A stretch of DNA of 40,903 bases, taken from Lachnospiraceae bacterium (lineage in GTDB: Bacteria; Bacillota; Clostridia; Lachnospirales; Lachnospiraceae). Made by a program: the position numbers and the translations under genes. Below the pieces are notes generated by a model. It was not told the origin of the DNA and made no database searches. It worked only from the letters and a program-made list of their open reading frames with translations. Each line of letters starts with the position of its first letter. Position 1 is the stretch's first letter. The DNA is taken from the NCBI GenBank assembly GCA_017548765.1, contig JAFYZH010000071.1, positions 1 to 40,903 of the forward strand, written 5' to 3'. Of this stretch, positions 25,515 to 26,063 are shown piece after piece.

Positions 25515-25705
25515 ACCATCCCTGCTTTCACTCTACGGACAATTCTTCCAAGCCAAAACTCCTCGCCCCATCAAATCCATTTCTTGCCCTTCTCTAAGTG
25601 AGGCACTCCCTCAAATCCACTCTTCTCAAATCCACTCTCCTCAAATCTACTCTCCTCGCATCTCCGCGGGGCAGGCTGATCTGATGTTTCGCGCCGACAT
25701 ATAGG
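25515..25705. other. Non-coding spacer upstream of gatC
   Basis: No supportable gene. It holds the 15-base tandem repeats, and no promoter matching the consensus could be identified on the minus strand. The gat genes may therefore depend on readthrough from dapL or on an atypical promoter. Confidence 0.5.
25610..25654. repeat. Three tandem 15-base repeats
   Basis: CTCAAATCCACTCTT (25610-25624), CTCAAATCCACTCTC (25625-25639) and CTCAAATCTACTCTC (25640-25654) are head to tail, followed by a decayed fourth unit (CTCGCATCTCC) and preceded near 25571 by a looser related copy. On the minus strand each unit reads as Glu-Ser-Gly-Phe-Glu in one frame, but no start codon serves that frame, so I do not call it coding. 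Confidence 0.85.
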
Positions 25706-26063
25706 TAAATGGGGGCTGGCACACAAGCGCAGTCCCCAGCAGCGTCGGGTTAGAAATCGTGCAATTAATTAAGCTGCGATCGAAAGGCGGGCATTGATCG
25801 AGCTGTAGATGATCACCGCGAAAGAGAAGTCGGATAAGGGGCATAAAATCGGACCACAAGTCCGATTTTTGCGCTAGCAGAGTGCATTTTCATCAAGAAA
25901 ATGGACTCTGTCGAAGCGGGACCCCTTAAATCCGACTTCGAGAAAGCGGACTGATCATCACAGCGCAGTGAACCTGACCGCCGTCGATCGCACTTAATAA
26001 AACAGGCGCCGATTTCTAAACCGGCGCCTTACCGGGACTGTCTTGGTGCGCCAGCCCCTTTTA
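25706..26063. repeat. ~358-base giant imperfect palindrome with a three-way-junction centre (MITE-like or structured RNA)
   Basis: The two halves are complementary almost end to end. Matching blocks, left with right: 25712-25720/26050-26058, 25730-25736/26034-26040, 25746-25748/26021-26023, 25750-25759/26010-26019 (10 bp), 25768-25773/25993-25998, 25777-25782/25985-25990, 25786-25790/25978-25982, 25792-25796/25966-25970, 25803-25806/25960-25963, 25808-25815/25952-25959, 25816-25819/25946-25949, 25826-25835/25930-25939 (10 bp) and 25836-25841/25922-25927. The centre carries two further hairpins, 25845-25854/25860-25869 and 25878-25891/25897-25910. TA dinucleotides lie at both ends (25706-25707, 26062-26063). 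No gene inside is convincing. It could be a miniature inverted-repeat element, a large non-coding RNA or both. Confidence 0.85.

What the first reader, a model, noticed from the sequence alone, without database searches (positions are those of the whole stretch)
25706..26063. A 358-base giant imperfect palindrome with a built-in three-way junction lies between dapL and gatC
Thirteen blocks on the left pair in order with thirteen on the right over some 350 bases, including two perfect 10-bp helices and a 16-bp helix with one 2-base bulge next to the centre. The centre is not a simple loop: it contains two more stable hairpins (25845-25869 and 25878-25910), so a transcript would fold into a long rod ending in a three-way junction. 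A symmetrical purine-rich 6x6 internal loop (25820-25825 with 25940-25945) interrupts the rod. Loops and bulges differ between the arms while the paired bases match, which suggests selection on structure. TA at both borders and GGGGCTGGC-type ends fit a miniature inverted-repeat element; the ordered centre fits a non-coding RNA. I know of no described RNA class with this shape.
Basis: partly seen in the sequence, partly recalled or inferred. Interest (0 to 1): 0.8.

Follow-up and report, generated by a model that had tools for sequence, protein, structure and literature searches.

The report
Shape-conserved giant hairpins behind genes
The long hairpin next to dapL is one copy of a family of bacterial repeats that keep the same folded shape while their stem sequences change, apparently because DNA replication copies one arm of the hairpin from the other.

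Summary
The palindrome is real (MFE -194 kcal/mol, z -15.6) and it is not single. A model of its core (rod plus three-way junction) gives 21 to 32 matches, some partial, in each of 6 genomes of the genus. A broader model finds relatives in 33 of 397 sampled genomes of the same family, 27 of 334 genera. In class and order samples it found only members of that family (1 of 291, 2 of 295). Junction and loops are conserved, helix sequences are not: in G031, 28 of 93 pairs show all four Watson-Crick types. The core's right end faces a stop codon in 99 of 116, 38 of 44 and 13 of 17 copies with a gene call. Four results point to arm-to-arm copying in DNA: no G.U strand bias in the genus; inverted copies of the neighbouring coding end beyond the distal arm; one copy of 46 turned into a perfect palindrome with inverted centre; matched changes between orthologues. 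No Rfam family matches. I read it as a non-autonomous mobile hairpin settled at gene 3' ends. Mobility and function are inferred, not shown.

The parts
25711..25787 (+). left (distal) outer arm, an imperfect inverted copy of the dapL 3' region
   Evidence: fold; orthologues
25788..25980 (+). conserved core: rod, internal loops and three-way junction
   Evidence: R1 match G000:C82:25788-25980, 186.8 bits
25846..25868 (+). hairpin A of the three-way junction
25877..25911 (+). hairpin B, apical loop ATCAA between C and G, of a type seen in many genera
25981..26058 (+). right (gene-proximal) outer arm
26005..26028 (-). intrinsic-terminator-like hairpin behind dapL (T-rich tract at 25991-26004 read on -), contained in the right arm
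   Evidence: sequence; a like hairpin in 5 of 6 genus genomes
25656..25709 (+). degenerate inverted copy of the dapL coding end and stop codon, beyond the left arm
   Evidence: shuffles as good: G000 7 of 2000, G003 2 of 2000, G005 0 of 2000; by the stricter test the window copy is not among the 22 best rows shown, its G005 orthologue is (p 0.019)
   Evidence: ORF; matches in 6 of 6 genus genomes

Best explanation
The feature is one copy of a dispersed family of long-hairpin repeats of one bacterial family. A copy is a foldable core (rod with conserved internal loops, three-way junction, conserved apical loop of hairpin B) inside variable outer arms, set down just behind a gene with a preferred orientation. 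SHOWN: repetition, conservation of fold and loops, orientation, arm complementarity, inverted copies of neighbouring coding ends. WELL SUPPORTED: the helices stay Watson-Crick paired because one arm is copied from the other in DNA, by template switching at the hairpin; such events extend the palindrome into the flank and can erase loops and invert the centre. INFERRED: the shape is recognised by a mobilising enzyme supplied in trans, so the element spreads as a non-autonomous mobile hairpin that prefers stem-loops at gene 3' ends. The window copy sits at the dapL terminator and has the dapL 3' end inverted on its far side.
For: Copies: 23 R1 matches in the own genome, some partial; 7 of 61 genomes positive, all 6 of the genus among them; 53 matches in G031 and 17 in G020; 33 of 397 family genomes. 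Fold: 33 of 54 pairs doubly changed in 13 copies, 67 of 93 in 11 G031 copies; 52 of 93 pairs with three or more Watson-Crick types and 28 with four in 45 copies; unpaired columns more conserved than paired, 0.86 vs 0.70. Orientation: the right end faces a stop in 99 of 116, 38 of 44, 13 of 17 and, by a cruder caller, 16 of 17. Of those facing a stop, 26 of 38 G031 and 11 of 13 G020 outer arms end within 33 nt of it. Edges: GTCC right at the right arm edge in 36 of 46 G031 copies. DNA copying. At dapL 3 of 6 genomes hold the element, 2 remnants, 1 none.
Against: No transposase was found; Y1 transposases are no commoner in element-bearing genomes (9 of 15) than in element-free ones (15 of 22), and no other enzyme family was tested. 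No clean empty site or target duplication was seen. No match in plasmids (one G031 query) or phages (the window query) by blastn. 97 of 135 copies fall into groups with shared flanks between genomes, so many are old. 35 of 134 copies have arms no more alike than the control. The stop-codon rule could also mean a function. The models lean on structure, so weak matches may be other hairpins. Exchange between copies (gene conversion) could explain part of the stem changes.
Confidence: 0.5

Rival explanations
1. A host-useful 3'-end boundary element: the sense transcript of the upstream gene, or an antisense transcript running into it, folds into the rod and stops exonucleases or read-through.
For: Orientation to the stop codon and short distance to it. 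Neighbouring copies lie left end to left end in 21 pairs, with 1 tandem case (many of these loci were fetched because they were pairs). Copies kept at the same loci in several genomes. In G031 outer arms wobbles favour the sense strand, 38 vs 17.
Against: In the window's genus wobbles show no strand preference, 281 vs 264; G020 is close to even, 21 vs 15. Here a terminator-like hairpin lies before the core. Only 33 of 397 family genomes were positive (strict filters, so a lower bound).
Confidence: 0.28
2. A free structured non-coding RNA, probably read from the + strand of the core.
For: Ordered three-way junction and conserved loops across genera. The CTGA/GAAT internal loop would give G.A pairs on + and pyrimidine mismatches on - (inference). 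In core helices G.T exceeds A.C on +, 66 vs 50 in G031 and 20 vs 10 in G020, though on a structure predicted from +.
Against: No Rfam match. Core helices are 95 to 96 percent Watson-Crick with few G.U, whereas 6 tRNAs from the same loci had 113 Watson-Crick, 11 G.U and 0 A.C pairs (small control). Tens of matches per genome in the best-searched genomes.
Confidence: 0.12
3. Ordinary palindromes that grew by template switching at terminators, without recognised function or mobility.
For: The marks of copying. The dapL arm includes the terminator.
Against: Loops, asymmetric internal loops and outer edges conserved between unrelated loci, several of them between genera, are not expected from growth alone; copying would erase the asymmetric loops, as in 1 copy of 46.
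Confidence: 0.08
4. Assembly artefact or chance folding.
For: Some contigs of draft genomes end in or next to copies.
Against: Copies in genomes listed with 1 contig: G064, G075, G113, G260, G310, G351, G925; z-scores near -15; orthologous loci.
Confidence: 0.02

Closest known systems
REP and BIME repeats with RAYT (TnpA-REP); features recalled, papers seen in the listing only
   Same: Many intergenic palindromes per genome, tied to recognition of folded DNA
   Different: About 350 nt instead of short; helix sequence not conserved; no association with Y1 transposases
MITEs and ERIC/RU-type repeats (recalled; RU papers seen in the listing)
   Same: Non-coding, dispersed, inverted arms, defined outer edges in G031
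   Different: Arms are not terminal repeats shared by all copies
IS1272 stem-loop-replacing transposition (PMC5678879, passages read)
   Same: Insertion at stem-loops, often just behind genes
   Different: IS1272 carries a transposase gene and a fixed sequence; none seen here
Template-switch mutations that create and maintain RNA hairpins (PMC8794818, passages read)
   Same: Predicted marks: several matched changes in a stem, stem extension, inverted loops
   Different: There in known RNA genes; here in long dispersed repeats of unknown transcription
Perfect inverted repeats up to 284 bp in nematomorph mitochondrial genes (PMC6649704, start of abstract seen in listings)
   Same: Long near-perfect palindromes
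   Different: Inside genes of animal mitochondria; the paper was not opened

Membership tests
REP/BIME with RAYT | cognate Y1 transposase in the genome | tested here: not met
   PF01797 in 9 of 15 element-bearing and 15 of 22 element-free genomes; none in G000 itself
REP/BIME with RAYT | short palindrome of conserved sequence | tested here: not met
   cores of about 183-197 nt without the 23-nt module (ends set by the models), stems variable
MITE | terminal inverted repeats shared by all copies | tested here: not met
   21 of 990 pairs of G031 arms and 15 of 120 pairs of G020 arms exceed the 99.9 percent shuffle level; a few groups of copies do share arms
MITE | target-site duplication and empty site | tested here: inconclusive
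   one locus read in six genomes: G001 lacks the element but differs too much to define a junction
MITE | partner transposase with the same ends | not tested
   whole genomes were not given as files
Structured non-coding RNA | conserved secondary structure with covariation | tested here: met
   33 of 54 pairs and 67 of 93 pairs with both sides changed
Structured non-coding RNA | G.U preferred over A.C on one strand, the same in all genomes | tested here: not met
   outer arms + vs -: genus 281 vs 264, G031 17 vs 38, G020 15 vs 21; core helices lean the other way, 66 vs 50 and 20 vs 10
Structured non-coding RNA | transcript | not testable with these tools
   no RNA data
Any Rfam family | match at the gathering score | tested here: not met
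   0 in the window; in 4 loci one tRNA outside the element and three matches below gathering score
IS1272-like element | replacement of a target stem-loop | not tested
   needs pre-insertion sequences

The most novel reading that the evidence does not exclude
A repeat defined by three-dimensional shape rather than by sequence: a bacterial family carries up to tens of copies per genome of a hairpin whose helices are free to take any sequence because template switching rewrites one arm from the other, while a dedicated factor reads only loops, junction and helix lengths.
Probability: 0.35. Interest if true: 0.9.

Novelty: new variant of a known kind. Interest (0 to 1): 0.77.

Why it matters
Covariation is normally taken as strong evidence of a functional RNA. 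Here strong covariation comes with signs of DNA arm copying and, in the window's genus, without the G.U bias of RNA selection. The family is thus a natural test of how far template switching can imitate RNA selection, and it holds readable single events (a loop-erased 57-bp rod, inverted copies of coding ends). If the shape is recognised by an enzyme, it is a new mobile or boundary element.

Tried and rejected
RAYT association: not found. Rfam: no relevant match. Plasmids: no match for one G031 query; phages: no match for the window query. TA-flanked element: borders not shared by other copies. Resemblances to attC sites and to the hammerhead core (CUGAUGA) were considered from memory and dropped, because those letters are not shared across genera. 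Literature: searches listed no paper that by title or start of abstract describes such a family; two papers were opened, by passages only.

Rows left out and weak points. A1 leaves out the truncated copy L009. One search used 123 of the 125 matches (left out: L130 1-110 and L127 2181-2244) and 12 of the own first loci (L006 is the same place as L081, L009 is truncated); some of the 135 are partial matches and 11 are from G031. One search used only matches of about 180 nt or more and positions with matching neighbours. Outer-arm counts leave out L265 and L274; its core counts use 46 rows of A4 and 16 of 17 rows of A5. One search leaves out L265. Counts on A4 and A5 lean to the model's structure, which was predicted from the + strand. 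Cross-genus alignment was poor for the window's genus, so R3 was built without it. The largest cluster (34 copies) is a chain through shared repeats, not one locus. The first G005 dapL test took a wrong position (1365 of 2000) and was repeated. One search includes orthologues, so its 23 of 78 are not independent. Searches over more than 40 genomes used strict filters and scored few candidates per genome (6 to 8), so absences are weak. Gene calls are from simple scripts of mine. The tRNA control holds 6 tRNAs.

Full report
WHAT IS THERE. The palindrome at 25711-26058 folds far better than shuffled sequence on both strands (z -15.55 and -14.99). Its right end is 29 nt from the dapL stop triplet.

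IT IS A FAMILY. A blastn search of the own genome found 13 further loci; they match the core and at most about 20 nt of arm, at 67 to 80 percent identity. A covariance model of 13 copies (R1; 33 of 54 pairs changed on both sides) found 23 matches in the own genome, some partial. Among 61 genomes it found 21 to 32 matches in each of the 6 of the genus, 9 in G031 (another genus) and none in the other 54. A model of 11 G031 copies (R2) raised G031 to 53 matches and found 17 in G020, none in the other 39 of 41. R1 over 397 family genomes gave 11 positives. R3, from G031, G020, G176, G381 and G075, gave 33 of 397 (27 of 334 genera). It gave 1 of 291 in the class sample, the own genome only, and 2 of 295 in the order sample, the own genome and G925 of the same family. 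One pattern in named genomes hit 23 stretches, all titled Lachnospiraceae or uncultured Clostridiales, some from sheep or buffalo rumen; that the family is Lachnospiraceae is inferred from this.

ANATOMY. In most genera looked at the core is a rod of near-constant helix lengths with an asymmetric internal loop, often a CTTAG/CTTAG T.T mismatch, then a three-way junction with hairpins A and B; copies of G258, G325 and G396 depart in detail. Of 17 further copies from 15 genera, 16 hold a CTGA..GAAT-type pair of strands by a permissive pattern; 12 hold CATCA and one more TATCA, the usual apical loop of hairpin B (L292 of these was in R3). Helix sequences vary freely. Outer arms are unrelated between most copies (only 21 of 990 G031 pairs and 15 of 120 G020 pairs exceed the 99.9 percent shuffle level), yet complementary within a copy: 99 of 134 copies beat 95 percent of cross-copy controls, 35 do not. 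In G031 the arms are 39 to 116 nt at 92 to 100 percent identity in 45 of 46 copies (L249 has 10 nt), with GTCC right at the right edge in 36 of 46 and most often TGG at the left edge.

POSITION. In the genus plus the first 11 G031 copies the right end of the core faced a stop codon in 99 of 116 copies with a called gene within 400 nt; 17 faced a start, and 19 of the 135 had no gene that near. In G031 it was 38 of 44 (2 without a call), in G020 13 of 17, in 17 copies of 15 genera 16 of 17 by a cruder caller. Of those facing a stop, 26 of 38 in G031 and 11 of 13 in G020 have the outer arm end within 33 nt of it. Neighbouring copies lie left end to left end in 21 pairs, with 1 tandem case (many of these loci were fetched because the listing showed pairs).

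HOW THE ARMS STAY PAIRED. (1) Mismatches in genus arms show no G.U preference for either strand (281 vs 264, with 656 transversions). G031 and G020 outer arms hold 2595 and 1592 matched positions, with 17 vs 38 and 15 vs 21 wobbles for + and -. The G031 excess on the sense strand speaks for an RNA rival; the core helices lean to + (66 vs 50, 20 vs 10), on a structure predicted from +. Six tRNAs in the same loci had 113 Watson-Crick, 11 G.U and 0 A.C pairs. (2) At dapL the distal flank of three species holds an inverted copy of the end of the dapL coding sequence (7, 2 and 0 of 2000 shuffles as good in G000, G003, G005). Over 78 genus copies, 23 reach p below 0.05 and 5 below 0.01 for an inverted copy of the neighbouring coding end on the far side; orthologues are among them, and the window copy is not among the 22 rows shown. 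RNA pairing hardly explains this; copying does. (3) Copy L265 of G031 is a perfect rod over 57 of 57 positions, where the median copy matches 42 of 50 and the next best 44, and its centre is inverted relative to its outer edges; it is the only such copy of 46. (4) Orthologues differ by matched multi-base changes in stems while blocks between them are identical (G002_L083 and G004_L153). These are the marks that Monttinen and Loytynoja list for template switching (PMC8794818, passages). Swaps of the inner core between orthologues (dapL, G000 vs G003) suggest that exchange between copies also occurs.

WHY NOT PALINDROME GROWTH ALONE. In 45 G031 copies unpaired columns are more conserved than paired ones (0.86 vs 0.70, 44 vs 186 columns, Mann-Whitney p 8e-7; that alignment is fitted to the model). 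Asymmetric loops persist although copying can erase them. I infer that something selects the shape.

HISTORY AT ONE LOCUS. The dapL element is present in G000, G003 and G005, reduced to what I read as remnants in G002 and G004, and absent in G001, which has another terminator. In G000_L097 most of the core is missing.

MECHANISM. I commit to a non-autonomous mobile hairpin at gene 3' ends (0.5), against a useful 3' boundary element (0.28). Nothing here shows mobility directly, and no enzyme was found; of enzyme families only Y1 transposases were tested, without association.

NOVELTY. No Rfam family matches, and six literature searches listed no paper that by title or start of abstract describes it. 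Dispersed palindromic repeats are a known kind; one conserved by geometry with freely changing helices is, as far as I know, a new variant of it.

Noticed in passing
L005, L009, L010, L011, L013, L014 flanks: Hairpins of the type GTGACA..GGGGACGGTTC..TGTCAC, REP-like, lie beside or around these genus copies and are shared between loci.
   Followed up: no
L068, L069, L070 between the paired elements: Other large palindromic repeats (GTCAAGGC..GCCTTGAC units and TTGTAAGCCGGC units) fill the spacers.
   Followed up: no
G031 loci, left flanks, e.g. L084, L240, L250: Repeats of roughly 95 nt with a CGCGTGCC..GGCACG hairpin, sometimes in tandem, follow many elements.
   Followed up: no
L002, L003, L007, L011, L012 hairpin B: A 23-nt hairpin module sits at the same point of hairpin B in some copies only, and orthologues differ in having it.
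   Followed up: partly
L230 92-389: A long element scores against a plant miRNA precursor model below its gathering score; not evidence of a miRNA.
   Followed up: no
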